Below are positions 34,783 to 58,869 of a stretch of 64,000 nucleotides of DNA, piece after piece; the stretch's first letter is position 1; every line of letters starts with the position of its first letter. The notes beneath the pieces are model-generated. The model was given only the letters and a program-made list of their open reading frames with translations, was not told where the DNA came from and did not search any database. The DNA lies in assembly GCF_000757845.1 (NCBI RefSeq), contig NZ_CP007753.1, positions 1-64,000 on the forward strand, given 5' to 3'. Source of the DNA: Prochlorococcus sp. MIT 0604 (GTDB lineage Bacteria > Cyanobacteriota > Cyanobacteriia > PCC-6307 > Cyanobiaceae). Position numbers and translations under genes: made by a program.

Positions 34783-36369
34783 ATGAGTCAAACATCTTTA
34801 AAAAAAGAACGAGATCCTTCAATTTTAATTTTAGATTTCGGATCTCAATATTCTGAATTGATTGCAAGAAGAATTAGAGAAACTAATGTTTTTTCTCTTG
34901 TAGTGAGCAATTGCATTTCAATTGAGGAAATAAATAATATTAATCCTAAAGGGATCATTTTGAGTGGAGGTCCAAATTCTGTATATGAACAAAATGCTCC
35001 AAAGTGTGATGAAAAAATTTTTAATTTAGGAATTCCTATTCTTGGCATATGCTATGGAATGCAATTAATGGTAAAGGAACTCGGAGGATCTGTTATTTCA
35101 GCAACTAAAAAAGCTGAATATGGTAGAGCACCAATAATTATAGATCAAGAATCTGAACTCCTTTTTGATGTAGAAGATAAATCAATTATGTGGATGAGTC
35201 ATGGCGATTCTATTAATTCTCTGCCTGATGGATTTAGTAAAATTGCTCATACTGAGAATACTCTCCATGCAGCAATTTCAAATGATGTAAAGAAATTATT
35301 CGGTGTACAATTTCATCCTGAAGTTATTCATTCTGAGTTTGGGATTACTGTAATTAAAAATTTTGTTTATAAAATTTCTTGTTGTCCAGCTGATTGGACA
35401 ACAGAAACCTATATAGAGGAAACTATTCCCAGAATAAGAGAGCAAGTTGGCAATAAAAAAGTTTTGCTCGCCTTATCTGGAGGAGTTGATTCTTCAACTC
35501 TTGCTTTTCTTCTAAATAAAGCAATTGGAAATCAGCTTACATGCATGTTTATAGACCAAGGTTTTATGAGAAAAGGTGAACCAGAATTTTTAATGAATTT
35601 TTTTGATAAGAAATTTCAAATAAAAGTTGAGTATATTAATGCAAGGAAAAGGTTTATTGCCAAATTAAAAGGGATTACTGATCCAGAACAAAAAAGGAAA
35701 ATTATAGGTGAAGAATTTATTAGAGTATTCGAAGAAGAAAGTAATAGATTGGGACCATTTCAGTATTTAGCCCAAGGTACTCTCTATCCTGATGTTATTG
35801 AAAGTGCTGGTACTAATATTGATCCTAAGACTGGTGAAAGAATAGCTGTAAAAATAAAGAGTCATCATAACGTGGGTGGATTGCCAAAAGATTTACAATT
35901 TAAATTAGTCGAGCCTTTGAGAAAACTTTTTAAGGATGAAGTCCGAAAAGTGGGCGCTGCTTTAGGTTTGCCGGATCAAATCATAAAAAGGCATCCATTT
36001 CCAGGCCCTGGATTGGCTATAAGAATTTTGGGAGAAGTAAATAATGAAAAACTTGATTGTTTAAGGGATGCAGATTGGATAGTAAGAGACGAAATTAAAA
36101 AAGCTGGTCTTTACAATGATATTTGGCAAGCTTTTGCAGTATTGTTGCCTGTAAAGACTGTAGGCGTTATGGGCGATAAAAGGACTTATGCATGGCCAAT
36201 AGTTTTACGTTGTGTATCTAGTGAAGATGGTATGACAGCCGATTGGTCAAAAATTCCTTTTCAGATTTTAGAGAGGATTGCAAATAGAATCGTAAATGAA
36301 GTAATTTCAGTTAATAGAGTTGTTTATGATATTACAAGTAAACCTCCTGGAACTATTGAGTGGGAATAG
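34783..36369 (+). CDS. guaA: GMP synthase (glutamine-hydrolysing)
   Basis: GuaA aminates XMP to GMP. The glutamine amidotransferase triad is C90 (GICYGMQLM), H178 and E180 (FHPEV). The ATP pyrophosphatase P-loop LSGGVDSS lies at 231-238, and the dimerisation domain ends in KPPGTIEWE. All 528 residues are intact even though the last codons form the repeated core of the downstream cassettes. The 3' end of guaA is an established integration site for genomic islands in other bacteria, which fits the block that follows. Confidence 0.97.
36352..36367 (+). other. Attachment-like core at the guaA 3' end
   Basis: ACTATTGAGTGGGAAT codes for the last residues of GuaA. It recurs with one or two changes at 42160 and 47001, outside any gene, in the same orientation. 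Repeats of a gene end at the far side of an inserted segment are the usual mark of site-specific integration. This copy would be attL of cassette A. Confidence 0.75.
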
Positions 36370-36611
36370 TAAATAGGGTTAAAGTCCAGTTATAGACACA
36401 AAAAAGAGGTTTCCCTCAGGTTTCCCTCAGAAATAGTGTATCCTGTTCGCAATGGTTTTCAGCATAGAGGTTTCCCTCAGGTTTCCCTCAGAAATAGTGT
36501 ATCCTGTTCGCAATGGTTTTCAGCATAGAGGTTTCCCTCAGGTTTCCCTCAGACTAAAAATCTTGTCTCTATAGAGAAATCGTAGAGTTTTAAATTTCTC
36601 TACACCTAAAA
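36370..36611 (+). repeat. Left module of cassette A with 11-bp tandem dimers at 61-bp period
   Basis: This non-coding stretch holds CAGTTATAG, then GAGGTTTCCCTCAGGTTTCCCTCAG-type blocks at 36406-36430, 36467-36491 and 36528-36552. Each block is a head-to-tail dimer of GGTTTCCCTCA. The 36-bp spacers between blocks are identical and contain CCTGTTCGCAATGGTTTTCA. The last dimer is followed at +21 by the 31-bp inverted repeat. Repeat-spacer form is CRISPR-like at first glance, but the spacers are the same, which excludes an array of acquired spacers. Confidence 0.9.
36572..36602. repeat. 31-bp inverted repeat next to cassette A cargo
   Basis: TAGAGAAAT and ATTTCTCTA are perfect 9-bp inverted arms around a 13-bp centre, preceded by the palindrome TCTCTATAGAGA. 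The same structure occurs at 42320 and 47169, and in decayed form at 48325, each time starting 21 bases after the end of the last 11-bp dimer. It could be a recombinase core, an operator or a promoter element. It shares CTATAGAG with the guaA-type core. Confidence 0.8.
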
Positions 36612-36812
36612 GGATGTAAATACTGGATAAAAAGAAGAGAACTTTGTGAAGGTTGTTGTCTTAAAGTTGCATAAAAATATGGATGGAGAGAATTACAAAA
36701 AGATCAATTTAGTTCTTTTGTTAAAAGTAAAGATATCGCCATGGGGAATGGTTTTTATGAAGAAAAAATTGAAGTATGGATAGATAAGAATGAAGTGATT
36801 GATAAAATTTAA
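36612..36812 (+). pseudogene. Remnant of a small cysteine-containing protein gene
   Basis: One frame reads GCKYWIKRRELCEGCCLKVA, stops at TAA (36672-36674), and continues KYGWRELQKDQFSSFVKSKD through DKNEVIDKI to a TAA at 36810. Amino-acid composition on both sides of the stop looks coding, and the cysteines resemble a zinc ribbon. It overlaps the methylase TTG start by 14 bases. A nonsense mutation in a former cassette gene is the simplest reading. The family is not recognised. Confidence 0.5.
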
Positions 36813-39800
36813 TCTCAAAGTTAATGCATACTTTTCTCTGGAATTTTTAATCGCTAAGATAAAAAAAAATCCTTATTTTGTGAAAAGTGAAATAGATAAT
36901 CAAATTCTTATTGCTTTTTACAATAAGAGAGTTTCTAGAGCAACAAATGAAGAGCAGGTCATCCAACTATGTAATGCATTGCTTGAAAAATTATTTAGTG
37001 ATAGAGGATTTGATTCTTTTGAGCATGCAGTCTCTGCTGAAAGATCTGTTTTAAGAAAAAAAATTTCAGGTATCATTTCAAAAGGAAATGCTGACTGTTT
37101 GGGAGATAATCTTATTATTGAATATAAATATGATTTAAATAATAATAAACAAAAAGAAATAGCAGAAGAACAACTTTTAGAAAATATCGAATTTTTGAAA
37201 AGAGAAGGAGATAATGCTAAATACCTTTTAATAGCAACTGACGGTTTAAGGTGGATTAATTATGCTTATTTAAAAGATGAAAAAATAAAATTGAGAAAAG
37301 TTGAGGAAGTTGAATTTAATGGAAAAAATATTGATGATTTTATTTTTTATTTAAAAGGAATTGCCTTTCGAAGAAAAAATAAAGTTGTACCTACAAAAAA
37401 AAGAGTCGCTGCTGATTTAGGTTTAAAATCTCTTACATATTTGCATTCTTTAAATCTTTTAGAGAAATCATTTGAAAAAGGTAAAAATGAAAAAAAAGTT
37501 ATCCAAACAAAATTTGATCTGTGGAAAAAACAAATTAGTATCGCATATGGGAGTGATCAAAGCGATAATAATTTATTTCTAAGGCACACTTACTTAACAC
37601 TAGTTTCATATATATTTTCTGCAATCGTAATTGAATCAACCTATTCAATAAAAGATAATTTATTTGAAATACTTACTGGGGAATGGTTTAGAAAACATTA
37701 CGTTAGAAATCTAGTTGAATCTGATTACTTTACATGGATTATAGATCTCTATTCAGAGAGAAACATAAAGGAAATCCTCTCAGAAATCACAAATATTTTG
37801 GAGACTTACGATACTGAAAATGTACCTGAAGATTTCCTTAAAGAACTTTATCAACAACTTGTAGATCCTCAAACAAGACATGATCTTGGAGAATTTTATA
37901 CTCCGGAATGGTTAGCAGATGCAATTACAGAAAACTGTTTAAAAGAAGTCAATTTTGAGAATGAACTTCCCAAAATACTTGATCCTTCATGCGGTAGTGG
38001 AACATTCTTAAGATCTTCTGCTAAGTACATATTAGAAAAAGCAAATAAAAGGAAATATTCAATTCCAAAATTAATTGATTCAGTAGTGGGTATAGATATC
38101 CATCCCCTTGCAGTAATAACTGCTAAAACAAATCTTTTCATAACATGGAGAAAAAAGATAAAGGAATATGCTCAACCTATAAGTCTTCCAGTTTATTTAG
38201 CAAACACCCTTACTCATACCGTAAGTAATGCAGAGGATGCTCCTTTGATCAGAATGATGGAAGGAGATAGCAATAGATGGGAAATTGAATTGTTAGGAAA
38301 TAATTTCTCATTTTCTGAAACATTGTTAGCAAGGCAGGGTTTTTTTAATAAAGTAATTGATGAAATAGAAGAAATATGTAACGAATTAGTCAAGAAATAC
38401 AGTACTGAGAATAAAAATAACTTATCTAATGATGTAAAAAGTGTACTTAGTAATTACAAAGAAATTGAAAGAAAAGATAATGAGGAACTTCTTAAATATT
38501 CAAATTTTCTTCTTGAACAAAAATTTAAAAAGAATGACTCAGTTTACAGTTTTGTTTTAAGGAACCAAAGCATGCCAAAGGTTTTAGAAAATGAATTTGA
38601 TTTTCTAATTGGTAATCCTCCTTGGTTAACAATAAAGGATATAAATAATTTGAAATATAAGGAACAAATTTTAAATCTCAATGAAAAATATGATTGTATG
38701 TCAAGGAATAGAGGCGAACAGTCAAGCACTGAAATTGCTGCTTTATTTATCCCTCTTGCAGCGAGATATTTTTTAAAAAATAAAAAATTTAGTGATAATA
38801 AATCTTACAAAAATATTGGATTTGTTTTACCAAGATCATTCATGACAGCAAAACAACATTCTCAACTCAGAAACGCGAATTATCATCCACATTTTTATTG
38901 TGCTGAAATATGGGATCTAAACGATGTTGATAATCTTTTTAATGTTCCTTCATGTGTGCTTTTTTTTAATCCACTTAACCCTTTAAAAGTAAACAATAAA
39001 TTTATTACTTCTCCAGAAGCATTAAAAGCAGAAATTAATGGGAGAGTGTTTTCTGGAGATGGAGGAAATTTAATAATGTCAAAAAATGCAGAAGAAAAAA
39101 TTGATTTCAAAGATTCAGTTTTTCATTATTTGAATATAAAAGACAAGATTTCTGCATATGTTGACATCAAAAATATTTCACAAGATTTTAAAAATTACCT
39201 AAAAAAAATAAATTATTTCAAAAAACAATTATCTGATGATTTTCAACAAGGTGGAATTTTCTATCCTCAACCATTGATGATTGTAGATATAGTTGAAAAA
39301 TTAAGGCATCCCATAACAAGAATAAGAACAAATACAGATGCAAGAAAAAAAACAAAAAAAGAAAGTCTAAGGAATTTTAATTTAGATCAATTAGTGGATA
39401 CTAAATCATTATTTTTAACTGCTGCAGGTGAACATATATACCCTTTTAGTTTAAAAGAAGATTCTCTGTGGCATGTTGTGCTCCCAGTGATACAACTACC
39501 TTCTGGAAATCTTTCTTTAAAATCATCGCAAGACTTAAGGAAAGAAGGATTGACTGAAACAGCAAAATACTGGTCTAAAGTTGAAGATGAATGGAATAAG
39601 TTAAAAAATAATAATGAGGAAGAACTTTTTAAAAGAATAGACTTTAATTCTAACTTAACTAATCAAAATCTACAGAAAAGATATCTCCTATTAGCAAATG
39701 CTAGTGGTTCTAGGCAATATGTTTCTTTTACTGATACTGAAACTTTACCTTTACCATTTATCGCAAGAGATAAAACATATCAATGGCGGACAAATGATAA

Positions 39801-40143
39801 AAATGAAGCGGGATATTATTTGGGAATTTTAAATTCGGACTTTATCAACTCTATAGTAGATCCATTTATTAATTTAGGATTGCTTGGTAAGCGTGATATA
39901 GGAACAAGAATGTTTTCTCTTCCTATTCCACCATATGATCAATCTCAAGTTCTTCAAACAGAAATCAGTACAAAGGCATTAAATCTATATTCCAAATCAA
40001 ACAAATTGATTAGGGAATGTAATGACCAAAAAAGTTTAATTGCAAAAGATGTTGGAATTTTGCGCCGACAAATTAGAAATGCATTGCATAGAGAATCTGA
40101 TGAATTAAATAATTTGATTATTCTGTACTTTAATTCTCATTGA
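36799..40143 (+). CDS. Type IIG-like restriction-modification enzyme
   Basis: One long protein (1114 residues) combines an N-terminal nuclease-like region and an adenine methylase. The nuclease signature is D99 with E108-x-K110 (ADCLGDNLIIEYK), the PD-(D/E)XK pattern. The methylase has motif I DPSCGSGTFL from residue 395 and motif IV NPPW at 606. The C-terminal third fits a target-recognition region (PLPFIARDKTYQWR). Eco57I/MmeI-class enzymes cut and methylate with a single chain, and PglX-like methylases look similar, so cutting is inferred. A TTG start is used. It is the main cargo of cassette A. Confidence 0.85.
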   Translation: MIKFNLKVNAYFSLEFLIAKIKKNPYFVKSEIDNQILIAFYNKRVSRATNEEQVIQLCNALLEKLFSDRGFDSFEHAVSAERSVLRKKISGIISKGNADCLGDNLIIEYKYDLNNNKQKEIAEEQLLENIEFLKREGDNAKYLLIATDGLRWINYAYLKDEKIKLRKVEEVEFNGKNIDDFIFYLKGIAFRRKNKVVPTKKRVAADLGLKSLTYLHSLNLLEKSFEKGKNEKKVIQTKFDLWKKQISIAYGSDQSDNNLFLRHTYLTLVSYIFSAIVIESTYSIKDNLFEILTGEWFRKHYVRNLVESDYFTWIIDLYSERNIKEILSEITNILETYDTENVPEDFLKELYQQLVDPQTRHDLGEFYTPEWLADAITENCLKEVNFENELPKILDPSCGSGTFLRSSAKYILEKANKRKYSIPKLIDSVVGIDIHPLAVITAKTNLFITWRKKIKEYAQPISLPVYLANTLTHTVSNAEDAPLIRMMEGDSNRWEIELLGNNFSFSETLLARQGFFNKVIDEIEEICNELVKKYSTENKNNLSNDVKSVLSNYKEIERKDNEELLKYSNFLLEQKFKKNDSVYSFVLRNQSMPKVLENEFDFLIGNPPWLTIKDINNLKYKEQILNLNEKYDCMSRNRGEQSSTEIAALFIPLAARYFLKNKKFSDNKSYKNIGFVLPRSFMTAKQHSQLRNANYHPHFYCAEIWDLNDVDNLFNVPSCVLFFNPLNPLKVNNKFITSPEALKAEINGRVFSGDGGNLIMSKNAEEKIDFKDSVFHYLNIKDKISAYVDIKNISQDFKNYLKKINYFKKQLSDDFQQGGIFYPQPLMIVDIVEKLRHPITRIRTNTDARKKTKKESLRNFNLDQLVDTKSLFLTAAGEHIYPFSLKEDSLWHVVLPVIQLPSGNLSLKSSQDLRKEGLTETAKYWSKVEDEWNKLKNNNEEELFKRIDFNSNLTNQNLQKRYLLLANASGSRQYVSFTDTETLPLPFIARDKTYQWRTNDKNEAGYYLGILNSDFINSIVDPFINLGLLGKRDIGTRMFSLPIPPYDQSQVLQTEISTKALNLYSKSNKLIRECNDQKSLIAKDVGILRRQIRNALHRESDELNNLIILYFNSH

Positions 40144-40264
40144 TGAAAATGTTTTTGGGATAATTTACGAACTTTTAAAATCATTTTTCTTGTATCTCAA
40201 TGAGGTAACCATGCCTCATCAATCTTAAATTAGCATGCAATTTATTTTTTTGATTATTTCATCT

Positions 40265-40657
40265 TCAAAGAGTCTTATCTAACCACTCTAATCTACTTTT
40301 TTTAAGCATCATTTCACAATACTCATAATGAGGACCATATTTATTCCAAGTGCATTCGGTTTGATAATAAGTCTTAAACGCAGTTTGACTTCTCTTTAAT
40401 TGGCAAGCATGTGATTCAAATCCTTCTTTATCGCAATCACCTCTAGAGGATATCTGCTTTTGAATTAAAGAATCAATTTTTTTTGATGCTTTTGTTGAGC
40501 ATTCCCATACTAATGCATTATTCATTTTTTTAGGCAAAGCATCATCTAAACATTTTGAATAGAAATCATATTTGCCATATTCTTTTTTATCCTTTGTTTC
40601 AGAATTAACGGGACATAAAAAACTTAAAAATAAGATACCAAATAAAAGTTTTTTCAT
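40265..40657 (-). CDS. Secreted LprI-like protein
   Basis: The ATG at 40657 gives 130 residues starting MKKLLFGILFLSFLCPVNS, a clear signal peptide. The mature part has spaced cysteines and the pattern LKRSQTAFKTYYQTEC, close to the LprI/DUF1311 lysozyme-inhibitor-like fold, where a central W/F-x-x-Y-x-x-x-x-C is conserved. The start overlaps the upstream stop as TAATG, so translation is coupled. An upstream in-frame start would add MQKILSLWMGL and lose the signal. Last of three secreted genes in cassette A. Confidence 0.75.
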   Translation of the reverse strand: MKKLLFGILFLSFLCPVNSETKDKKEYGKYDFYSKCLDDALPKKMNNALVWECSTKASKKIDSLIQKQISSRGDCDKEGFESHACQLKRSQTAFKTYYQTECTWNKYGPHYEYCEMMLKKSRLEWLDKTL

Positions 40658-41208
40658 TAATCCCATCCATAAGGAAAGAATTTTCTGCACCCACCTGAAT
40701 TAACAAAAAATCCTTCTGTCGCATCAATAATAGTTTTCATCTCTTTTGATAATTGCTGTCTTCCATACTGACCTTGCTCAGTAAAAGGAATCGAATAATA
40801 ATAACCTTGGGCAAGTGATGGCATTAATGCTCTTAATTTGCCAGACTTCCTATCCTCTTTTGAAGTTGCTCTTCCTAATTGATTGCCTACAAAATTAATA
40901 AAAGGTCCTGTTCTTATCTCCTTTGTATTTTTTGTTCTTTCCTGATAGGTTTTTTCTTCCTTTAATAATTCAGGCGAATATGATCTTGCGGTGTAATACT
41001 GACCACCATATCCATTCCAAATACCTACATAGAAACCTAAAGAAGGTTGATTTTTATAATTTAGAGTTCCTATACCGCCACCTGAACCAGTATATTTCAA
41101 AGTTATCGTCACATCTGGTTCTACTTCACTTGTAAGAGTGCAAAGTGAATCTGCCTTAACTGATGAAATAAAACCGAATGAAAAGAATAAAAATAAAAAG
41201 TGTTTCAT
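40657..41208 (-). CDS. Secreted hypothetical protein
   Basis: A 183-residue product with a signal peptide (MKHFLFLFFSFGFISSVKA) and a mature domain rich in glycine, tyrosine and serine, with two cysteines, one near the start and one in NSGGCRKFF. It is the middle gene of a three-gene unit with overlapping starts and stops on both sides. I do not recognise a family. Confidence 0.72.
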   Translation of the reverse strand: MKHFLFLFFSFGFISSVKADSLCTLTSEVEPDVTITLKYTGSGGGIGTLNYKNQPSLGFYVGIWNGYGGQYYTARSYSPELLKEEKTYQERTKNTKEIRTGPFINFVGNQLGRATSKEDRKSGKLRALMPSLAQGYYYSIPFTEQGQYGRQQLSKEMKTIIDATEGFFVNSGGCRKFFPYGWD

Positions 41209-41561
41209 CTATATCTACCGTCACGATATTTTAATTTGGTAGTCTCTTCGCAAATATCAACATCTATCCATTCCATATTTGCAGTATGAGTTGGCATGTC
41301 TTCTTTTGCGGCAACTGTATATTTACATTCTCCTTTTTCCTTATAAACCCAATACCAAGGATACTTATAAAATTTATTGTCCTTAATTTTATCGGACAGT
41401 ATCTTCCAATATTTGTCATTAACTAATTTAATTGCTGCTCTTTCTCCTTCAGTACATTCACCTTGCGATTCTGGGCAGGTATATTTGTGCCTTTTATATT
41501 GTTCTGAATTAGCAGAAGTATTAAAACCAAATATTAATAATAAAAGAATTAATTTTTTCAA
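41205..41561 (-). CDS. Secreted small hypothetical protein
   Basis: A 118-residue protein with signal peptide MKKLILLLLIFGFNTSANS and a cysteine-bearing mature part (YTCPESQGECTEGE, GECKY, DICEE). The stop overlaps the next start as ATGA. First of three coupled secreted genes. Not recognised; the three together could act at the cell surface. Confidence 0.7.
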   Translation of the reverse strand: MKKLILLLLIFGFNTSANSEQYKRHKYTCPESQGECTEGERAAIKLVNDKYWKILSDKIKDNKFYKYPWYWVYKEKGECKYTVAAKEDMPTHTANMEWIDVDICEETTKLKYRDGRYR

Positions 41562-41574
41562 CGAATTTTTATTG

Positions 41575-41757
41575 TTAAATCAATTTTAAGGAATCTGTCA
41601 ATTCGTTTCTAAAATGCTTTAAAAATAAAATAAGAGGGCATTTGTTTGCCCTCTTCGAGTCGTATGCACCTCGCTGTCCACAAAGTCGATGAAGTGCTTT
41701 TGACTCCTGAATTATTTCTACTCCTACTGAACCGAAAAAGATAGTCGTGACAACCAC
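41575..41757 (-). CDS. Possible small protein with RGAYDS-Cys motif
   Basis: A GTG-started 60-residue frame reads ...HRLCGQRGAYDSKRANKCPL..., which looks protein-like and resembles short picocyanobacterial proteins from memory. The DNA for RANKCPL forms a hairpin (GAGGGCA-aacaaa-TGCCCTC) followed by a T-rich run on this strand, so the end of the frame may instead be a terminator after a shorter gene. Coding status is undecided. Confidence 0.4.
   Translation of the reverse strand: MVVTTIFFGSVGVEIIQESKALHRLCGQRGAYDSKRANKCPLILFLKHFRNELTDSLKLI
41628..41650 (-). terminator. Strong hairpin with T-rich tail
   Basis: GAGGGCA and TGCCCTC pair around a six-base loop. On the minus strand the stem is followed by TTATTTTATTTTT. 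It lies inside the reading frame 41575-41757 and could end a transcript coming from the right. Confidence 0.45.
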
Positions 41758-41839
41758 AAAGCACTTTTACTCGGGTAATAATACTCTATGAATTTCAGGT
41801 TAATAGGAGGACAATATAGATATAGATCTAGGAGGTCTT

Positions 41840-42022
41840 ATGAAACTATTCAATCAATTTAACATTCTTCCAAGATACTTAACTGCGTTTAATTATGCAG
41901 GTTTAAATCTTAACGATACGCCAAAAGAACTTGAGAAATGTGCCCCTGAGTTTCAAAACTTTTGGGATAAAGAATGTAGGGAACATCCAACAAATCAAAA
42001 TTGTCTAATTTACTGTGACTGA
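41840..42022 (+). CDS. Small conserved cyanobacterial protein
   Basis: This 60-residue frame reads MKLFNQFNILPRYLTAFNYA and ends KECREHPTNQNCLIYCD, with a D-T-P-x-E-L-x-x-C-A-P-E-F centre. I recall near relatives scattered through picocyanobacterial islands. The start is preceded by AGGAGG seven bases upstream, an unusually good Shine-Dalgarno for this AT-rich genome, and another AGGAGG lies 23 bases further up. Function unknown. It is the last gene of cassette A. Confidence 0.7.
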   Translation: MKLFNQFNILPRYLTAFNYAGLNLNDTPKELEKCAPEFQNFWDKECREHPTNQNCLIYCD

Positions 42023-42065
42023 GTAATAATTTTTAAGTTTTTATTCAATAAACTCTTCTTAAAAA

Positions 42066-42133
42066 GAGGTTTCCCTCAGGTTTCCCTCAGGAAAATGTGT
42101 GTTATTATGGGTTCAAACATGTTGGTATCACTA
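42066..42133 (+). repeat. Right module of cassette A: dimer plus 12-mer
   Basis: The GGTTTCCCTCA dimer of cassette A recurs once at 42066-42090, and TTGGTATCACTA follows at 42122-42133. The guaA-type core starts 71 bases after the dimer end, the same distance as at the right end of cassette B. The 12-mer recurs exactly at both ends of the flv3 insert. Confidence 0.85.
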
Positions 42134-42159
42134 CGTTTATGACTGCCCTTTTTCTCGGT

Positions 42160-42175
42160 ACTATAGAGTGGGAGT
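42160..42175 (+). other. Attachment-like core between cassettes A and B
   Basis: ACTATAGAGTGGGAGT matches the guaA 3' end at 14 of 16 positions. A following GATAGGGTATAAACCCAGTTATAG parallels AATAGGGTTAAAGTCCAGTTATAG after guaA. It would be the right end of A and left end of B. Confidence 0.75.
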
Positions 42176-42360
42176 GATCGATAGGGTATAAACCCAGTTA
42201 TAGTCTAAAAAAGTTGGTTACACGTGGGTTACACGTGAGAATTCTGTTAACCTATTTGCAATGGATCTCAACAGCGAGGTTACACGTGGGTTACACGTGA
42301 GGGTAAAATCTCATCTCTATAGAGAAATCGTATAAAAATAAATTTCTCTACACTTTCCAC
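42176..42360 (+). repeat. Left module of cassette B
   Basis: Dimers of GGTTACACGTG occur at 42216-42237 and 42278-42299, 62 bases apart. Between them lies CCTATTTGCAATGGATCTCA (42251-42270), matching the A spacer at 15 or more of 20 positions. The 31-bp inverted repeat (42320-42350; arms TAGAGAAAT/ATTTCTCTA) starts 21 bases after the last dimer. No gene is seen in 42023-42386. Confidence 0.88.
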
Positions 42361-42386
42361 ATTTTTATGGTTTTATTTTCTGAGTA

Positions 42387-42911
42387 ATGGCAAAAGAAAT
42401 TCCTCAAATTACACGCTATTACGACACTGTACCTCCTTATTGCCATGTGTTTAAAATTTCGGAAAGGAAATATGAAAGCGATACCGACAAGGATCATGAT
42501 ATTTCATATTCGAATGACCATTTTGAGTTAGAGAGTTCTAACCCTGCCGATACTGTTAAAGTGGCAACTTTTTTGAGAGAGAAGCAATACAAACCAAATG
42601 AAAATATTAAAAAAGATTTTTACTACGTTTGTGAATTTACATGGCAACCATATAGAAAGATTAAAGAATATAAGAATAGTGAAGATATTACATATGAAGG
42701 TGATGAGACTAAAGAAACAAGTCATTTGCTTTTCTGGATTTTTTGGGATGACGATTTTAGTTGTTGGCAGAGATCTCCCGCATTTGCTTGTAGGTATGCA
42801 TCTTCACATCATGAGGCAGGAGATTGGATGATGAAAGAAATAACTGCTGCAGGGAGTGAAGCACATGATTCTGATTACTTCAAAAATGGAAAACTAGAAA
42901 TATTAATTTGA
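42387..42911 (+). CDS. Hypothetical protein, paralogue of the next gene
   Basis: A 174-residue acidic protein, rich in aromatic residues and histidine. It shares with the following gene the blocks LESSNPADTVKVATF, FYVCEF, H-x-E-A-x-x-W-M-x-K-E and the ending FKNGKLEILI. No signal peptide or membrane helix. No family is recognised. Its place beside a nuclease-helicase suggests a regulator, partner or immunity role, which is inference only. It carries an insertion of about 25 residues relative to its paralogue. Confidence 0.75.
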   Translation: MAKEIPQITRYYDTVPPYCHVFKISERKYESDTDKDHDISYSNDHFELESSNPADTVKVATFLREKQYKPNENIKKDFYYVCEFTWQPYRKIKEYKNSEDITYEGDETKETSHLLFWIFWDDDFSCWQRSPAFACRYASSHHEAGDWMMKEITAAGSEAHDSDYFKNGKLEILI

Positions 42912-43019
42912 ATATTTCTCACCTACTTCAACTTTTCTTTTAAGTATTTTTTTTATTTGATATCAGAACTAAAATAAGAGTCATGAAACATTCTTTTTTT
43001 TTAGTTTAATTTTTGATTA

Positions 43020-43475
43020 ATGGGAAAAGAAACTTATCTAATAGAAGAATATTGGCATGACGAGGTAACTGCTTTTGGTACGGCGTTCGGCATTTTAGGC
43101 GAGAGAGAAACACCAAAAGATGATTTCTGTGAATCAACTGACTTTAATAATCTAGAGAGTTCCTTACCTCCAGATACCATTAAAGTTGCAACTTTTGTGT
43201 ACAAAGAATACTCCACAAAAAAAATAAATTTTTATGTTTGCTCATTCCCGGAACCACATCCACATTATTCATATTCTCTCTTCTCAATAATGTGGAGTAG
43301 AGATAATCTCTGGGAATTAAATCCTTGGTACTGTTGTTCTGTAAAATCTGATCAACCTCAACCATCTTTACATAAAGAAGCAGCAAATTGGATGTTAAAA
43401 GAAATGACTACTAAAGGTTGTGCTATTGCTCCGTTAGACGTCTTCAAAAAAGGAAAATTAGAGATATTGATTTAA
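43020..43475 (+). CDS. Hypothetical protein, paralogue of the preceding gene
   Basis: A 151-residue protein with LESSLPPDTIKVATF, FYVCSF, LHKEAANWMLKEM and FKKGKLEILI, aligning end to end with the gene at 42387. The overall similarity is moderate while the ends are strongly conserved, so the duplication is old or the centre evolves fast. About 110 bases separate the pair. It converges on the nuclease-helicase with only 17 bases between stops. Confidence 0.75.
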   Translation: MGKETYLIEEYWHDEVTAFGTAFGILGERETPKDDFCESTDFNNLESSLPPDTIKVATFVYKEYSTKKINFYVCSFPEPHPHYSYSLFSIMWSRDNLWELNPWYCCSVKSDQPQPSLHKEAANWMLKEMTTKGCAIAPLDVFKKGKLEILI

Positions 43476-43492
43476 GCATCTTTTATTAATTA

Positions 43493-46400
43493 TTAATTTT
43501 TATATGACCATATCCACCCTTTAAGACTCTCGAGCATTTCAATTCTTTTTTTAGAAATTTTTTTATTTTTATATGCTGTTCGCTGGTTTTGGGACCATCT
43601 TCCAAGAGATGAATTCTTTGGAGGTTTTTTATCTCCATTTTTATTTTTATATTCTTTGAACTCATCAAATTTACTTTGCCATTGTTCCTCTAATCGATCC
43701 CAACTAAAACCAATACTTTCAAGTAAATCAGACTTTTCTTTAGACATTTTATTTTTGCTAAAAGATAGTCTTTGTGTACTAACCCAACTTCCTAATGGAC
43801 CACTATTTGCAGAAGGATTTACATGTCCATTTTTTTTCTTATATTCCTTTAACTCATCAAATTTACTTTGCCATTCTTCCTCATAAGGATTCCATACGAA
43901 ACCAATACCATCTAATAAATCTTTTCTATCTTTTGAAATTGATTTTTCTCTTCTTTGATTTAGAACCCAAACTCCTAAAGCACCAAAACTTTTTGGAGGA
44001 TTTACATGTCCATTTTTTTTCTTATATTCCTTTAACTCTTCAAATTTTCTTTGCCATTCTTCTTCTTTTATATCCCAGATAAAACCAATACTATTTAATA
44101 ACTTCACTCTATCTTTGGGCATAGATTTCTCTTTAAATATTCTTCTTTGCGTAGTAACCCAACCTCCAAGAGAACCAAATCTTACTGGAGGATTTAAATG
44201 TCCATTTTTTTTCTTATATTCCTTTAACTCCTCAAATTTACTTTGCCATTCTTCTTCTTTTATATCCCAGATAAAACCAATACTTTCAAGTAATTGTATT
44301 CTTGGATAAGACAGTTCTTTTTGTTGAAATGTATATCTTTGGGTTCCGACCCAACTTCCTAAAGCACCTGTTCTTCTAGGAGGATTTACATGTCCATTTT
44401 TTTTCTTATATTCCTTTAACTCTTCAAATTTTCTTTGCCATTCTTCTTCTTTTATATCCCAGATAAAACCAATACTATTTAATAAGTTTTCCCTATCTTT
44501 ATTTAAGATACCTTGATTTAAATTGGTTCTTTGTGTCTTTGCCCATTTAATCAAAGAGGGATATTCCTTTTTAGGAGGATTTAAATGTCCATTGTTTTTC
44601 TTGTATTCCTTTAACTCTTCAAATTTACTGCGCCATGCTTCTTCGTAAGGGTCCCATACAAAACCAATACTATTTAATAAATTTATCCTTTCTCTTTTTA
44701 GTTGATGCCTTTTAAATTCCACTTTTTGTGTGCTTGTCCATTGACCCAGTGAAGAGTGATATGTGGGAGGATCCATATTATTATTTTGTTCTTTATAATT
44801 TTTTAGTTCACCAAATTTTTCTAACCAATCATCAGACGTATTTTGAATCAATATCGTTTGCAATTTGTTTATAAAATGTACAGAAACTTTTTTAGGTAAA
44901 TCAATAATTATTTTTCTAATACCTTTGCTAATGGTTCCTCTAGTTGCTGCTTTTCCTAAATTGATACGAAGAGAATCAATCTCTTCCATTAGAGAATCAT
45001 CTTGAGATTTCAAAGCAAGAATTATCTTCCATACGCTTGAGAACTTACTTGCAAGAACTTGGTCATTTATATTTTCATAAATCTGAGAAAGATAAACAGG
45101 AATCACGATTGTTCCAAAGGTTTTATTTTCACTTTTACGAATTGCTCTTCCTACTGCCTGAATAATATCTATCTGACTTTGTTTTGGATCAATAAAAGCA
45201 ATCCCATCAAGATTAGGAACATCAACTCCTTCAGACAGACATCTTGCATTAGTCAGTATTATTCTTTCACCTTTGCTTAGATTTTTTAATCGATTGATCC
45301 TTTTATTTCTTTCTGAACTACTCATTTCACCTGAAACGTGTTCAGAACAAATTACTTGCGTAGATTGTCCTGCACTATGCATCCATTTATTTACTTTTTT
45401 ATGGTCTTCAGCAAAGTATTTTGCACCTTTAACTAATCCATGAAAAGTAATTACTCTTTGCAGGTTATATTCATTAGTTGCTTTTGCAAGAGCAATATGA
45501 GAAGCAAGAGTTTCAGCATCTGTCTTTAATTCATTATTACCAATTTCTACAAGATCTCTATTCTCAATCTGATCTCTAATCATTTGATCATCTACACCGA
45601 CAACCACGACCTGATAGTCAGAAAGTAAATCCTTTTTAATTGCTTCTGAAAATTTAATTTGATAAAGAACCTCTCCAAATACTGAATGGTCATCCATTGA
45701 TGCCACTTCAATTTCTTTTTTGGATGCACTTTTCTTTAATTGTTTTGAGAGAACTCTTGGAGTAGCAGTCAAGAAGAGTCTTTTCTGGGATTTAATTTTG
45801 TTTTCATCAAGGACACATCCAAAAGCATCAGAAACTTTCCCTGCACATCTGTGTGCTTCATCGGCAATAACTAAGTCAAAAGGACTGGTATCGTGATGTT
45901 CCTGTGCTTCAACAATTAATGGTGCAGATTGATAAGTAGAAAAAACAACTTTTGAACCACTCTCATCTAAGAAATTTTTAATTTCTAAAGTTTCACTTGT
46001 AACTGGCACTCCAATTTCAGAAGTATTTGAGATCCATTCATCTTCAGATTTATCTTTTGCAACTGACTGATCGGAGCAAACACATATCCATTTGAAAGAT
46101 TCATTTGCTTCTGCATTCCACTCTTTCAGAATTTGAGACAGAAGACTTAAAGATGGAACTAAAACTAAAACTTGTTCTGCATTTATTTTTTCTTTTATCC
46201 ATAACGATGTAAGAGTTTTACCAGTTCCACATGCCATAAGAACTTGACCACGATCTGCCGTTTTTATTCCTTCAGATACTTTTTCGATTGCTTCGATTTG
46301 ATGTGGTCTTGGTTTTTTCTTTTCTTTTCTTTTGCCTTGATTTAGATCATCCATCGAAGATGGAAATTCAATTTCAGATTGTCTGAACTGTTCTAGTAAA

Positions 46401-46792
46401 AAACAGACAACTTGCTTCTCCTGACGATTAATTACTTGTTGAGCATTCTTTCCAATTCCATCAGTACTTGCAATTAATAATCTCCCATCAATTTTTGAGT
46501 CACTCGATTCACTTAAAAAACTATCTATTTCTGATTTTTTAATATCATTATTTGGTGCAACACATTTAGATTGAACTGCCCAAGTCTTTCCGTTCTTATG
46601 AGTAAAAACTAAATCGATTCCGCAATCGGCACCCCATCTCCTTGGATAATCGTTCCACAACCAAACTTCATCAATCTGACTTGACCATGTTGGATCAGTC
46701 TTTAGAAACCACTTAATAAATTTTTCAAACTGCTTTCCTCTAACCCCGACATCAGGATCCAAAGAAGCATAAAATTCATCAAAGGTTGCCAA
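43493..46792 (-). CDS. Nuclease-helicase with seven helicase-associated repeats
   Basis: The 1099-residue protein has three parts. Residues 1-140 hold an Mrr-like PD-(D/E)XK nuclease (G-x-x-F-E-K near 19-24, D60, Q74-x-K76 in GIDLV...AVQSK). Residues about 160-600 are an SF2 helicase with Walker A ACGTGKT (187-193), DEAH (311-314), FLTATPR and QAVGRAIRK. From about 655 to the end come seven copies of a 62-67-residue helicase-associated (HA) repeat of pattern W-x-x-K-F-x-E-L-K-E-Y-K...GFIWD. Restriction or phage defence is the likely role. It is the largest gene of cassette B. Confidence 0.88.
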   Translation of the reverse strand: MATFDEFYASLDPDVGVRGKQFEKFIKWFLKTDPTWSSQIDEVWLWNDYPRRWGADCGIDLVFTHKNGKTWAVQSKCVAPNNDIKKSEIDSFLSESSDSKIDGRLLIASTDGIGKNAQQVINRQEKQVVCFLLEQFRQSEIEFPSSMDDLNQGKRKEKKKPRPHQIEAIEKVSEGIKTADRGQVLMACGTGKTLTSLWIKEKINAEQVLVLVPSLSLLSQILKEWNAEANESFKWICVCSDQSVAKDKSEDEWISNTSEIGVPVTSETLEIKNFLDESGSKVVFSTYQSAPLIVEAQEHHDTSPFDLVIADEAHRCAGKVSDAFGCVLDENKIKSQKRLFLTATPRVLSKQLKKSASKKEIEVASMDDHSVFGEVLYQIKFSEAIKKDLLSDYQVVVVGVDDQMIRDQIENRDLVEIGNNELKTDAETLASHIALAKATNEYNLQRVITFHGLVKGAKYFAEDHKKVNKWMHSAGQSTQVICSEHVSGEMSSSERNKRINRLKNLSKGERIILTNARCLSEGVDVPNLDGIAFIDPKQSQIDIIQAVGRAIRKSENKTFGTIVIPVYLSQIYENINDQVLASKFSSVWKIILALKSQDDSLMEEIDSLRINLGKAATRGTISKGIRKIIIDLPKKVSVHFINKLQTILIQNTSDDWLEKFGELKNYKEQNNNMDPPTYHSSLGQWTSTQKVEFKRHQLKRERINLLNSIGFVWDPYEEAWRSKFEELKEYKKNNGHLNPPKKEYPSLIKWAKTQRTNLNQGILNKDRENLLNSIGFIWDIKEEEWQRKFEELKEYKKKNGHVNPPRRTGALGSWVGTQRYTFQQKELSYPRIQLLESIGFIWDIKEEEWQSKFEELKEYKKKNGHLNPPVRFGSLGGWVTTQRRIFKEKSMPKDRVKLLNSIGFIWDIKEEEWQRKFEELKEYKKKNGHVNPPKSFGALGVWVLNQRREKSISKDRKDLLDGIGFVWNPYEEEWQSKFDELKEYKKKNGHVNPSANSGPLGSWVSTQRLSFSKNKMSKEKSDLLESIGFSWDRLEEQWQSKFDEFKEYKNKNGDKKPPKNSSLGRWSQNQRTAYKNKKISKKRIEMLESLKGWIWSYKN
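43496..44830 (-). repeat. Seven HA-domain repeats coded in tandem
   Basis: Units of roughly 186-200 bp repeat head to tail in the 3' end of the nuclease-helicase gene. Middle units are nearly identical in DNA over stretches such as TTCTTATATTCCTTTAACTC, while the outer units are more diverged. Recent duplication or gene conversion within the array is likely. HA domains bind DNA in known members. Confidence 0.85.
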
Positions 46793-47000
46793 GATGTTTT
46801 AAGAGGAATTATCTTTCTGTCAATTTTAAATACCCTGTCAATTAATGATGATTTCTCTACAAAAATGTATTAAACTGCCAATATCCTCCAGATTGCCTGC
46901 TATGACTGGGTTACACGTGGGTTACACGTGAAGAAATCTGTCTTATTCTTCCCTCAAATCAACTGATATGACTATGTTTCTGGCAGTACAATTTCCTCGT
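46793..47000 (+). repeat. Right module of cassette B
   Basis: A GGTTACACGTG dimer lies at 46909-46930, then CTGATATGACTATGTTT (46963-46979), which parallels TTGGTATCACTACGTTT of cassette A. In both, this motif starts 38 bases before the core. The core at 47001 begins 71 bases after the dimer end, as in cassette A. No gene is seen. Confidence 0.85.
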
Positions 47001-47016
47001 ACTATAGAGTGGGAAT
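47001..47016 (+). other. Attachment-like core between cassettes B and C
   Basis: ACTATAGAGTGGGAAT differs from the guaA 3' end at one position of 16 and from the A/B core at one. It is preceded by CTCGT, as the A/B copy is preceded by CTCGGT. Confidence 0.75.
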
Positions 47017-47205
47017 AAACGGATTTTAAGAACTCAGCTATAACTTGAATTTATCGGTTTTACGTGAGAATTAGTCAAGATGATGGTTATTTCATGGCAG
47101 TGCTTTTGGGCGATAAAATATAGGGCGGTTTTACGTGGGTTTTACGTTGCTTTTATTCTCCGTCTCTTAAGAGAAATCATAGAGTTTTAAATTTCTCTAC
47201 ACCTT
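47017..47205 (+). repeat. Left module of cassette C
   Basis: GGTTTTACGTG occurs singly at 47056-47066 and as a dimer at 47127-47148, the second unit ending in T. The partner of the single copy has decayed. The inverted repeat (47169-47199, arms AAGAGAAAT/ATTTCTCTA) starts 21 bases after the dimer end. CAGCTATAACTTGAATTTAT (47034-47053) closely matches a stretch at 58761 in the flv3 insert. No gene is seen in 46793-47220. Confidence 0.85.
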
Positions 47206-47220
47206 GTATTCAAGATTTTA

Positions 47221-48117
47221 TTAAGCAGCAAGATTTCTATACCTTGTAAATTGCGGTTCAAATAATAATTTAACTGTTCCTAAAGGACCATTTCTGTGCT
47301 TACAAGTAATTATTTCAGCAATTCCTCTATCTTCAGTTTCTGGATTGTAATATTCATCTCTATAGATCATGGTAATAATATCTGAATACACTTCAAGAGG
47401 TTCAAAGTCTCTGATATCACTAAGTATTGGTCTTTTATTTCTTCTTTTCTCTACATCCTTACTAAGTTGAGAAATAACAATGACAGGAACATTTAGTTCC
47501 TCTGCCATCTTCTTAAGACTCTTTGCTAATTTCAATAAATACTCTTGCCTATTAGAAACATCTGATAAAGGCAAGTAATCAAGTAATTGGACATAATCAA
47601 GAATTACAAGTCCCAAACTTTTTTTTGTCGATTCCTCTTTAATTTTTTGGCAGATTGATTGCATCTCTTGAATGGAACTTATTGGTTTATCGGTGATATG
47701 CAAAGGTAATTTACTCAAATAATTAATTCCTTCATCCAATGCAAACCATTCATCTTGTTGTAATCTGCCTGTTCTTAATCGCCCAGATTCAATTCCTAAT
47801 TCCATTGACAAAAGTCGATTAGATATTTGTTCCTTACTAATTTCTAAATGAAAAAGGCAAATAGGAAGATTTTGAGTCTTAGCGACATTCAACGCGATAT
47901 TTAAAGAAAATGATGTCTTGCCCATTGCAGGTCTTCCACCAAGAACGATCAGCCCCCCTCGGGGAAGTCCTTGAGTCATTGCATCGTAATCATTAAAAGA
48001 TACTGGAATTCCAGAGTCACAAGTATTACCAAGAGCGAGATTTTTAATTTCTTCAAATTTGGTACTTAAAATATCTCCAATAACTTTTGTTCGATCATTA
48101 ATGCTTTCTTCACTCAT
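47221..48117 (-). CDS. Stand-alone DnaB-type helicase domain (RecA-fold ATPase)
   Basis: The 298 residues correspond to the C-terminal ATPase half of DnaB. Walker A GRPAMGKTS (61-69), VILDYVQLL (Walker B), ISQLSKDVEKR and the final CKHRNGPLG are present. The N-terminal collar domain of replicative DnaB is missing, and the usual R-E-S-G-S-I-E-Q-D-A-D stretch reads RDFEPLEVYSD. It is unlikely to be the chromosomal replicative helicase. A role in element replication, phage interference or accessory ATPase function is open. It is the cargo of cassette C. Confidence 0.85.
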   Translation of the reverse strand: MSEESINDRTKVIGDILSTKFEEIKNLALGNTCDSGIPVSFNDYDAMTQGLPRGGLIVLGGRPAMGKTSFSLNIALNVAKTQNLPICLFHLEISKEQISNRLLSMELGIESGRLRTGRLQQDEWFALDEGINYLSKLPLHITDKPISSIQEMQSICQKIKEESTKKSLGLVILDYVQLLDYLPLSDVSNRQEYLLKLAKSLKKMAEELNVPVIVISQLSKDVEKRRNKRPILSDIRDFEPLEVYSDIITMIYRDEYYNPETEDRGIAEIITCKHRNGPLGTVKLLFEPQFTRYRNLAA

Positions 48118-48282
48118 TCTTATTTTTTTAGGGAAACTTATATAAGCGAACTTAGAAGAAAATGCAAATTAAGTTTCTTAAAGAAATTTGATTTACTTTT
48201 AAATAAAACTTGTTATGGTCGTGTTTTAATTGTTTGTCGCAAATTTATCTTGGATAATAAAATAACTATGTTTGTTAAAGGT

Positions 48283-48355
48283 AGTTTGTTGTCAGTTTGT
48301 TTTGGCAATTATTTACTCTCTCTATAGAGAATTCGTAATCTGAATTTAAAAATTA
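48283..48355 (+). repeat. Diverged fourth module: 11-bp dimer and weak inverted repeat
   Basis: AGTTTGTTGTC (48283-48293) and AGTTTGTTTTG (48294-48304) form a dimer of the same period. TCTCTATAGAGAATTCGT follows, with TAGAGAATT starting at 48325, again 21 bases after the dimer end. The right arm of the inverted repeat is eroded. ATAACTATGTTT (48262-48273) just upstream resembles the right-module motif of A and B. No guaA-type core separates it from cassette C. Confidence 0.65.
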
Positions 48356-49929: not shown

Positions 49930-49946
49930 ACTACTGAGTGAAAGTA
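49930..49946 (+). other. Decayed guaA-type core at the right edge of the island
   Basis: ACTACTGAGTGAAAGTA matches ACTATTGAGTGGGAATA at 13 of 17 positions. It lies in the gap between the sulfotransferase and the Cas4-like gene. AGTTTATTATT (49852-49862) is near the expected distance for a right-side 11-mer. Both are weak; this is a tentative right boundary. Confidence 0.35.
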
Positions 49947-55846: not shown

Positions 55847-56093
55847 TTTAAAGAATTATTTTCTAATAGTGGTTAGTGACTTTCTAGTGATACCAAGGGG
55901 TGATATGCACTTTCAACGGATTTTCAACTATCGACCAGAACATTTAATTCTTGGAAAACCGTTTTGTATCAGTTGATTATACCTAGTAATAAAGAATTAT
56001 GGATAATTATATTTTTGCTCTATGGAATTTGTAGAAATTTGTTTATTTAAAATTAAATAGTGATTTAGATTACTAAATAATGATTTAAGTAGA
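55847..56093 (-). repeat. flv1-side end of the flv3 insert
   Basis: From flv1 outward: TTCTAATAGTGGTTAGTGAC... (55861-55891), a second copy of the flv3 3' end; the 12-mer TAGTGATACCAA (55885-55896); and the dimer CACTTTCAACG/GATTTTCAACT (55908-55929), which on the minus strand reads AGTTGAAAATC-CGTTGAAAGTG. GCTCTATGGAATTTGTAGA (56018-56036) loosely resembles the inverted-repeat region of the guaA cassettes. No gene is seen. Confidence 0.8.
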
Positions 56094-58286: not shown

Positions 58287-58412
58287 TCTTTTAAATTAAA
58301 ATTTCGGAAATTTTGAAATTTATTAATCCCTTTTATTAAGTAAATTTGTTTTTATTAGTAGAAATTATAAAGAATTTTCCATTTCTTAGATATTTTAAAA
58401 TCATAAAAGATT

Positions 58413-58637: not shown

Positions 58638-58867
58638 TTAATTATCTATAAGTTAATAAACATTTTTTGAATTATAAGAAGTAAAAAATAAATGGCATTA
58701 TTACATATCCATGTTGAGATCAATTTTCAACGGATTTTCAACTATAAATCAAAAAAAACTTAGTTATAACTTGAATCTATATTTTTTTCAACTGAATTTA
58801 AAAGTATAATTTTTTTATTTGAACTTAGTGATACCAATGGATTTTAAGTCTTTAGATGCTAAATCAT
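58638..58867 (-). repeat. flv3-side end of the flv3 insert
   Basis: The dimer AATTTTCAACG/GATTTTCAACT lies at 58722-58743, TAGTTATAACTTGAATCTAT at 58761-58780 (compare 47034-47053), a single TTTTTTCAACT at 58783-58793, and the 12-mer TAGTGATACCAA at 58826-58837. The flv3 gene end follows at 58868. No gene is seen here. Confidence 0.8.
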
Positions 58868-58869
58868 TT

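What the first reader, a model, noticed from the sequence alone, without database searches (positions are those of the whole stretch)
36408..48304. Each guaA cassette has its own private 11-bp tandem word
Seen: GGTTTCCCTCA in A, GGTTACACGTG in B, GGTTTTACGTG in C, AGTTTGTTGTC in the fourth module; (A/C)GTTGAAAATC in the flv3 insert. All are 11 bp, in head-to-tail dimers, with GTT fixed at positions 2-4 and the rest variable. In A, B and the flv3 insert the same word is at both ends. Inference: these are arm-type sites of related recombinases (or another DNA-binding factor) with diverged specificities, one per cassette.
Basis: partly seen in the sequence, partly recalled or inferred. Interest (0 to 1): 0.85.

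Follow-up and report, generated by a model that had tools for sequence, protein, structure and literature searches.

The report
Integrase arm-site words label guaA cassettes
In the ocean cyanobacterium Prochlorococcus, gene cassettes stacked at the end of the guaA gene carry matching 11-letter DNA words at both ends, which are most likely docking sites for the arm-binding domains of different but related integrases, so that most cassettes can move only with a helper element carrying the right integrase.

Summary
Words A and B are exact 11-bp dimers, the same word at both ends of each cassette; C, the fourth module and the flv3 insert have imperfect dimers. Seven exact 11-bp tandem loci stand against 0.05 expected. 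Words sit at fixed distances (+56, +117; -92 or -84) from copies of the guaA 3' end: an attL/attR anatomy. Of 78 Prochlorococcus guaA loci, 21 are empty and at least 41 occupied. Left and right words agree in class in 38 of 46 cassettes (shuffle mean 5.5, maximum 17). Seven elements at guaA carry a lambda-like tyrosine integrase inside the left words. The window's cassettes have none; 1 of 78 fetched stretches does. Best reading: the words are integrase arm-type sites and the cassettes are helper-dependent, CIME-like elements. Corrections: words form about ten shared classes, not one per cassette; GTT is not universal; binding is untested. The kind is known; the many arm classes on one core and the restriction cargo are, to me, new.

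The parts
34783..36369 (+). guaA (GMP synthase), target gene
   Evidence: ORF; empty sites in relatives have guaA followed directly by the PD-(D/E)XK-like gene
36352..36370 (+). core of cassette A left end: ACTATT-GAGTGGG-AATAGT, end of guaA
   Evidence: GAGTGGGA is the published GIsul2 integration site
36408..36429 (+). word A dimer L1 (core +56)
36469..36490 (+). word A dimer L2 (core +117)
36530..36551 (+). word A dimer L3, extra copy from a 61-bp duplication
36566..36605 (+). conserved left-end motif, 36 bp after the start of the last dimer
36799..40143 (+). cassette A cargo: type IIG-like restriction-modification enzyme
   Evidence: Pfam Eco57I/N6_Mtase, PADLOC REase_MTase_IIG
41840..42022 (+). 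60-aa ORF just inside the right word; recurs in 11 other guaA-downstream stretches
42068..42089 (+). word A dimer, right end (next core -92)
42122..42131 (+). right-end accessory motif TTGGTATCAC, next core -38
42160..42178 (+). second core copy, A right / B left
42216..42237 (+). word B dimer L1
42278..42299 (+). word B dimer L2
42314..42353 (+). left-end motif of B
43493..46792 (-). cassette B cargo: Mrr-like nuclease, type III-like helicase, 7 HA repeats
46909..46930 (+). word B dimer, right end (next core -92)
47001..47019 (+). third core copy, B right / C left
47056..47066 (+). word C monomer
47127..47148 (+). word C dimer, 10 of 11 positions equal
47163..47202 (+). left-end motif of C
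47221..48117 (-). cassette C cargo: DnaB C-terminal-like helicase
   Evidence: Pfam DnaB_C
48283..48304 (+). fourth module, imperfect dimer AGTTTGTTGTC/AGTTTGTTTTG
48319..48337 (+). left-end motif of the fourth module, again 36 bp after the dimer start
48362..49840 (-). fourth module cargo: TPR-sulfotransferase
49930..49946 (+). decayed core copy (4 of 17 changed), right border of the array
58867..58878 (-). flv3 3'-end core, left end of the flv3 insert
58722..58743 (-). flv3 insert, left dimer
55908..55929 (-). flv3 insert, right dimer
55860..55871 (-). flv3 core copy, right end of the flv3 insert

Best explanation
The 11-bp tandem words are arm-type binding sites for the N-terminal domain of lambda-like tyrosine integrases. 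The guaA elements share one core, the last codons of guaA (arms ACTATT and AATAGT around GAGTGGG). Each element class has its own arm word, typically one or two dimers on the left arm and one on the right. On integration the core is copied, so elements stack in tandem at guaA with a guaA 3' end at each junction. Some elements encode the integrase inside the left words. Most units, including all in the window, keep only the att sites and cargo, so they depend on a helper integrase of the matching word. In a stack where all cores are alike, the words would mark which left end belongs to which right end. Shown: anatomy, matching ends, empty sites, integrase-bearing elements with their own words, lack of an integrase in the window's cassettes. 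Inferred: that integrases bind the words, that word mismatch blocks recombination, and that cassettes move in trans.
For: Fixed spacing to core copies in many genomes. Left-right match: 32 unique pairs, identity 0.862 against permuted mean 0.632, maximum 0.722, 0 of 5000; class agreement 38 of 46, shuffle mean 5.5, maximum 17 in 10,000 shuffles. Empty sites in 21 of 78 loci. Seven integrase-bearing elements at guaA: the integrase starts 208-239 bp after the core in six and 1030 bp after it in L113; matching right words in L112, L074, L113 and L120 and by eye in L114. Pfam Phage_integrase over cut-off in both guaA integrases scanned. The predicted model aligns over residues 1-418 with full-length lambda integrase 1z1g, Z 16.3, 317 residues, rmsd 15.4. 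The N-terminal 97 residues alone rank an arm-type binding domain (3ju0) first, Z 5.1, rmsd 3.5, 69 residues. Pairs of 11-bp arm sites flanking a core, and different arm words among phages that share a core, are published for mycobacteriophages (passages).
Against: No binding or recombination data. Eight of 46 cassettes have different classes at their two ends. Similarity of integrase N-termini does not track word similarity significantly (rho 0.27, p 0.23, 21 non-independent pairs; the catalytic part does better, rho 0.49, p 0.024). No cognate integrase was found for the window's own words A, B and C. The N-terminal fold match is weak and tied with unrelated folds (actin capping protein, Z 5.0), and Foldseek alone found nothing at E <= 0.001. 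No matching right word was recognised for L115, and L121 is cut by its contig end.
Confidence: 0.87

Rival explanations
1. The words are sites for a recombination directionality factor (Xis) or another accessory protein rather than for the integrase.
For: Xis-type proteins can bind head-to-tail repeats (recalled); other conserved accessory motifs exist in the ends, the left motif and TTGGTATCAC/GATACCAA, so the ends probably bind more than one protein.
Against: The same word is on both arms flanking the core and varies by class together with the integrase-bearing element, as arm sites do; the other conserved motifs are one-sided.
Confidence: 0.07
2. The words are operators of a regulator or replication initiator carried by each element (iteron-like), unrelated to recombination.
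For: In six of seven integrase-bearing elements the left words lie just before the integrase gene; several of these elements carry a Rep-like or a primase-helicase-like gene.
Against: Words persist at both ends of cassettes in which these genes were not found, and in gene-free 140-148-bp units between two cores, at unchanged distances from the core.
Confidence: 0.04
3. The dimers are slippage products or selfish repeats without function, shared by end-to-end duplication.
For: Word A has a 61-bp duplication that added a third left dimer.
Against: The same positions hold different dimers in many species, with matching far ends often several kb away; chance and slippage do not give this.
Confidence: 0.02

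Closest known systems
Arm-type sites of tyrosine integrases (lambda; mycobacteriophages L5, Giles, Cluster K)
   Same: Short words in pairs on both sides of a core; Cluster K phages have pairs of 11-bp arm repeats, and phages with related integrases that use the same site (Pixie, Tweety) do not share arm words (PMC3203893, passages).
   Different: Here about ten word classes share one core in one genus and occur side by side in tandem arrays, mostly without an integrase gene.
CIMEs and microCIMEs (cis-mobilizable elements, Streptococcus)
   Same: att sites kept, recombination genes lost, cargo genes, tandem accretion at a gene 3' end; microCIMEs of 130-220 bp without genes (PMC7563491, passages) match the 140-148-bp units here.
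   Different: No conjugation family was matched among the ten proteins scanned; integrase-bearing elements carry Rep-like, primase-helicase-like and resolvase genes instead; arm words usually differ between neighbours.
GIsul2 and other guaA-targeting islands
   Same: Same target and core GAGTGGGA (PMC9376610, passages).
   Different: Different hosts and gene content; the paper's text has no hit for 'arm-type' or 'direct repeat'.
Tycheposons of Prochlorococcus
   Same: Cargo-carrying tyrosine-recombinase elements in the same genus.
   Different: Described as lying at tRNA genes (seen only second hand in PMC10872708, passages; original paper not held). The window has no tRNA gene; the target here is guaA.
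KplE1-type prophages with attL overlapping the integrase promoter
   Same: Integrase gene starts just inside the left arm sites in six of seven elements, so self-repression is plausible (PMC2951348, passages).
   Different: Regulation was not tested here.

Membership tests
Tyrosine-integrase attachment sites with arm-type sites | Core shared by element and target, duplicated on integration, with empty sites known | tested here: met
   Core copies at junctions and 21 of 78 empty sites
Tyrosine-integrase attachment sites with arm-type sites | Same short word on both arms at set distances from the core | tested here: met
   38 of 46 cassettes concordant, 8 not; offsets +56/+117 and -92/-84
Tyrosine-integrase attachment sites with arm-type sites | Elements of the family encode a tyrosine integrase | tested here: met
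   Seven elements; Pfam on two; model like lambda Int
Tyrosine-integrase attachment sites with arm-type sites | N-terminal arm-binding domain in that integrase | tested here: inconclusive
   Whole model aligns with full-length lambda Int from residue 1; domain alone ranks 3ju0 first but at Z 5.1, tied with unrelated folds, and no Pfam arm domain was matched
Tyrosine-integrase attachment sites with arm-type sites | Integrase binds the words | not testable with these tools
   Needs binding or footprinting
CIME / microCIME | att sites retained, integrase absent | tested here: met
   For the window: no integrase hit in the window's stretch. In 78 fetched guaA stretches only L074 has one between guaA and the next host gene; ten of the 78 do not reach that gene
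CIME / microCIME | Derived from ICEs or IMEs and moved by conjugation after accretion | tested here: inconclusive
   One weak Rep match (REP_ORF2-G2P, E 3e-4, below cut-off, L074 only) and no conjugation family among ten proteins scanned; transfer untested
Tycheposon | Insertion at a tRNA gene | tested here: not met
   No tRNA in the window; target is guaA (feature second hand)
GIsul2-type guaA island | Integration at GAGTGGGA at the guaA 3' end | tested here: met
   Core sequence
GIsul2-type guaA island | Integrase related to that of GIsul2 | not tested
   GIsul2 integrase was not fetched
Integron gene cassettes | attC sites and an integron integrase | not tested
   Considered only because cassettes are stacked; each cassette instead carries a guaA core copy and paired words

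The most novel reading that the evidence does not exclude
The words are orthogonal addresses: one shared chromosomal core is divided into ten or more mobilisation channels by arm word alone. A helper integrase can excise only cassettes bearing its word, even inside a stack where all cores are alike, and cargo is traded between channels. Picocyanobacteria would then carry a large pool of integrase-less cassettes, some with restriction genes, served by rare helper elements (5 of 266 genus genomes).
Probability: 0.45. Interest if true: 0.78.

Novelty: new variant of a known kind. Interest (0 to 1): 0.62.

Why it matters
It turns a puzzling repeat into a readable system: the words let one find the ends of mobile cassettes in genomes where no integrase is present, suggest how restriction genes accumulate behind guaA in an abundant ocean phototroph, and give a natural series of related integrases with different arm words on one core, which makes the recognition code of arm-binding domains and the helper dependence of cassettes directly testable.

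Tried and rejected
Word-A and GGTTTGTCACG dimers in viral contigs: none. The L074 integrase in viral contigs: no relative; with alignment A1 six distant matches, 23% identity over residues 172-432. In phage records: three distant partial matches, none covering 80%. In the viral structure library the integrase model matches phage integrases broadly (best E 5e-11, TM 0.34). So no phage carrier was found.

Link of integrase N-terminus to word: not significant with seven integrases. Avoidance of equal neighbours: 3 of 33 adjacent left words are alike, about what random assortment of classes gives (5.5 of 46, roughly 12%, so about 4 of 33; my arithmetic), so strict privacy is rejected. 'Own right end is the best match of all' holds for only 14 of 29, because classes are shared between cassettes. 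An RNA-structure reading of the left motif was set aside by eye: word-B and Synechococcus copies break the would-be pairs; no folding was run. Foldseek of the N-terminal model against PDB: nothing at E <= 0.001.

Rows dropped before counts: of 89 core-to-core units, one search uses 46 (longer than 230 bp, both ends called) and one search's test uses 37 (both dimers at least 8 of 11). 3 of 81 guaA loci were not fetched (guaA near a contig end); 10 of 78 could not be classed. Relatedness between cassettes is only partly removed by de-duplication. Two loci counted as empty (L091, L092) have a further core-like match about 8 kb away, taken as chance. Three word-A dimer sets could not be placed: L011 (contig start), the left dimers of L101 (contig end) and L134:1066 (no core recognised). 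Papers: passages only of PMC10872708, PMC7563491, PMC9376610, PMC2951348 and PMC3203893; all others search listings only. The original tycheposon paper was not found in the library. Statements that something is new rest on those searches of an open-access library.
Full report
What is there. The window is the first 64 kb of a 1.78-Mb single-contig genome; genomes of the same genus that could be named are Prochlorococcus. Behind guaA lie three modules and a decayed fourth. Copies of the guaA 3' end stand at 36352, 42160 and 47001, and a decayed one at the right border, 49930; the fourth module's own left core was not recognised. Word A occurs as exact dimers at 36408, 36469, 36530 and 42068, word B at 42216, 42278 and 46909; C has a monomer and a 10/11 dimer, the fourth module a 9/11 dimer. 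Seven exact 11-bp tandem loci occur in 64 kb, all words A or B; Markov sequences give 0.05 on average, at most 1 in 60.

Core and anatomy. The end of guaA reads ACTATT-GAGTGGG-AATAGT: two 6-bp inverted arms around 7 bp, the form of a tyrosine-recombinase core (sequence). GAGTGGGA is the published integration site of GIsul2 in guaA of other bacteria (PMC9376610, passages). In the window the first left word starts 55-56 bp after the core start in A, B and C, the right dimers of A and B 92 bp before the next core, and a conserved motif (TCTCTATAGAGAAATCGTAGAG...TTTCTCTACAC) starts 36 bp after the start of the last left dimer in all four modules (36566, 42314, 47163, 48319).

Comparison across the genus. 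guaA was found in 81 of 87 genomes at least 90% complete; downstream stretches of 78, the window included, were read. By distance from guaA to the next host gene (PD-(D/E)XK-like), 21 loci are empty, 6 hold a short insert, 41 are occupied and 10 are unresolved. Many occupied loci repeat the window's plan with other words. Of 89 core-to-core units (which also includes six integrase-bearing loci), 37 have both dimers intact and a mean left-right identity of 0.876; mismatched pairings average 0.64, and 0 of 2000 permutations reach the observed mean. After de-duplication 32 pairs give 0.862 against 0.632, maximum 0.722, 0 of 5000. With class calls, 46 units have both ends called and 38 agree; shuffles give 5.5 on average, 17 at most. 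Eight disagree; some may be composites with a lost inner core, which I did not test. Neighbours in a stack differ in 30 of 33 cases, no more than random assortment would give.

Do the words occur elsewhere? Word-A dimers (up to 2 mismatches) are in 17 of 200 genus genomes, with no hit for the reversed pattern. All 17 were opened. The dimers lie beside guaA, or 56 bp after or 92 bp before a core copy, save three sets that cannot be placed: two at contig ends (L011, L101 left) and one without a recognisable core (L134:1066). Three of these genomes (L133, L137, L139) hold a 148-bp core-dimer-core unit with word A at guaA. Word-B dimers are in 5 of 87 genomes, near guaA in four; in the fifth, about 71 kb from guaA, the dimer lies 56 bp after and 92 bp before two imperfect core copies (4 and 2 changes), a 148-bp unit.

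Integrase-bearing elements. PF00589 hits occur in 86 of 87 genomes, mostly a conserved protein of about 389 aa elsewhere in the chromosome; one genome has an integrase inside the guaA stack (L074). A search with it finds 5 of 266 genus genomes, and a scan of GTDB contigs gives seven loci with names: Prochlorococcus AH-716-K03, AG-347-G20, AG-402-M15, AG-409-O23, AG-355-P18, AG-321-E21 and Synechococcus AG-679-A04. All seven lie at the guaA core. The integrase starts 208-239 bp after the core start in six; in L113 it starts 1030 bp after it, behind two small ORFs. Left words: GGTTTCCCGTG (L112), AGTCTCACCCA (L113), GGTTTGTTGCG (L074), AGTTTCACACG (L120), AGATCACACAC (L114), TGATCACACAT (L115), TGACTACCCCG (L121); L114 and L115 are close to each other. 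Matching right words are called in L112, L074, L113 and L120 and seen by eye in L114; L115 shows none and L121 is cut by its contig end. So GTT at 2-4 is frequent, not fixed. Integrase identity to the first is 37-63%. Of the other genes: a 208-266 aa protein and a 314-327 aa protein in six elements, a 631-665 aa protein in three (L074, L113, L120), a 186-228 aa protein at the right side in five, which is a serine resolvase in the three scanned. The first is weakly like Rep in L074 (REP_ORF2-G2P, 3e-4, below cut-off) but not in the L113 copy; the large one is near DUF5906 (1.2e-5, just below cut-off). L115 has none of these, only a 694-aa ORF.

The integrase. AlphaFold2 model of the AH-716-K03 protein, mean pLDDT 76.7, pTM 0.49: a small sheet with a helix, a helical domain and the catalytic domain. 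VIA-align matches full-length lambda integrase (1z1g, Z 16.3, 317 residues, rmsd 15.4, model 1-418) and the Tn1549 integrase (6en2, Z 17.2, rmsd 12.9, 270 residues); I read the high rmsd as different domain placement. The first 97 residues alone (pLDDT 73.9) match best an arm-type binding domain of a known integrase (3ju0, Z 5.1, rmsd 3.5, 69 residues), but unrelated folds are tied and Foldseek finds nothing at E <= 0.001. I take this as consistent, not as proof.

Cassettes without integrase. A profile of the seven integrases, run on the ORFs of the 78 stretches, finds a member between guaA and the next host gene only in L074; three other stretches have weaker hits beyond that gene, two of them at flv3 and one (L058) not placed. 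Ten stretches do not reach the next host gene, so the count is for what was fetched. The window genome's own six PF00589 proteins are only remotely similar (best blastp E 1e-7 over 42 residues), and it has no match at E <= 1e-10. So the window's cassettes are integrase-less. Classes served by one of the seven integrases make up 18 of the 46 cassettes by left word, five of these being integrase-bearing elements themselves; words A, B and C have no known cognate. Units under 230 bp occur 13 times among the 89. They resemble microCIMEs of 130-220 bp (PMC7563491, passages).

Cargo. Cassette A carries a type IIG-like restriction-modification enzyme, B an Mrr-like nuclease with helicase and HA repeats, C a DnaB-like helicase domain, the fourth a TPR-sulfotransferase. 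Cargo is not tied to a word: the C helicase recurs at 94-96% identity in three other loci (L041, L059, L099) whose cassettes carry CCCTCA-, GTCACG- and CCCGTR-class words.

Second site. The flv3 insert (55860-58878) has a similar plan at another core, and related genomes have integrase-like genes there beside GTTGAAA-type words (L044, L103, L104). The L044 protein is a distant relative of the guaA integrases (about 21% identity, E 1e-13); its own Pfam integrase score is below cut-off.

How it most likely works. A helper integrase binds its word dimers with the N-terminal domain and the core with the rest, as lambda integrase does, and inserts the circle into the guaA 3' end, restoring guaA. 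Because cores are alike in a stack, matched words at the two ends could tell the recombinase which ends belong together. The first half rests on anatomy and homology; the second is inference. Pairs of 11-bp arm sites, and different arm words among phages using one site, are known from mycobacteriophages (PMC3203893, passages), so the kind is known; the number of classes on one core, the helper dependence and the restriction cargo in picocyanobacteria are what is new to me. A search of the held library for Prochlorococcus with guaA and genomic islands found one paper, on a Rheinheimera element (listing).

Noticed in passing
window 36566-36605, 42314-42353, 47163-47202, 48319-48337: A conserved motif follows the last left dimer by 36 bp; its two halves keep a 22-bp spacing in 50 of 158 segments behind core copies (empty sites included), against 4 and 11 hits of the halves in 380 random windows. 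In several integrase-bearing elements it lies just before the integrase start. Role unknown, perhaps a directionality-factor site or integrase operator.
   Followed up: partly
window 42122-42131 and right ends of relatives: TTGGTATCAC at core -38 (14 of 89 right ends) or GATACCAA, the reverse complement of its first 8 bases, at -36 (24 of 89); random windows 8 and 14 of 380. They seem to go with the -92 and -84 dimer positions, which I did not count.
   Followed up: partly
window 41840-42022: A 60-aa ORF lies 46 bp inside the right word of cassette A and recurs at 82-97% identity in 11 other guaA-downstream stretches, in several of them about 48 bp inside right words of two classes. Could be an end-linked passenger or a recombination helper.
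   Followed up: no
L033, L035, L036, L039, L056 (+45..185); L133, L137, L139: Similar 140-bp core-dimer-core units without a gene recur in several genomes, and 148-bp ones with word A in three more, like MITEs or microCIMEs.
   Followed up: partly
window 55860-58878; L044, L103, L104: A second target, the flv3 3' end, has a similar element plan with its own integrase type and GTTGAAA-type words.
   Followed up: partly
window 48362-49840: TPR-sulfotransferase cargo has relatives at 29-60% identity in 19 other guaA-downstream stretches, three of them with two copies.
   Followed up: no
window 42387-43475: Two small proteins (174 and 151 aa) without a Pfam or PADLOC match sit beside the Mrr-helicase in cassette B and seem to be paralogues; relatives of the 151-aa protein lie in L081, L096 and L099.
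   Followed up: no
L073 (oriented 2762-2887): A 42-residue, 60% match to the Rep-like protein of L113 in a guaA stretch without an integrase: probably the remains of a fuller element.
   Followed up: no
G000:C1:1090800 and 1290988 (L004, L005): The genome holds two copies of the same 433-aa integrase about 200 kb apart.
   Followed up: no
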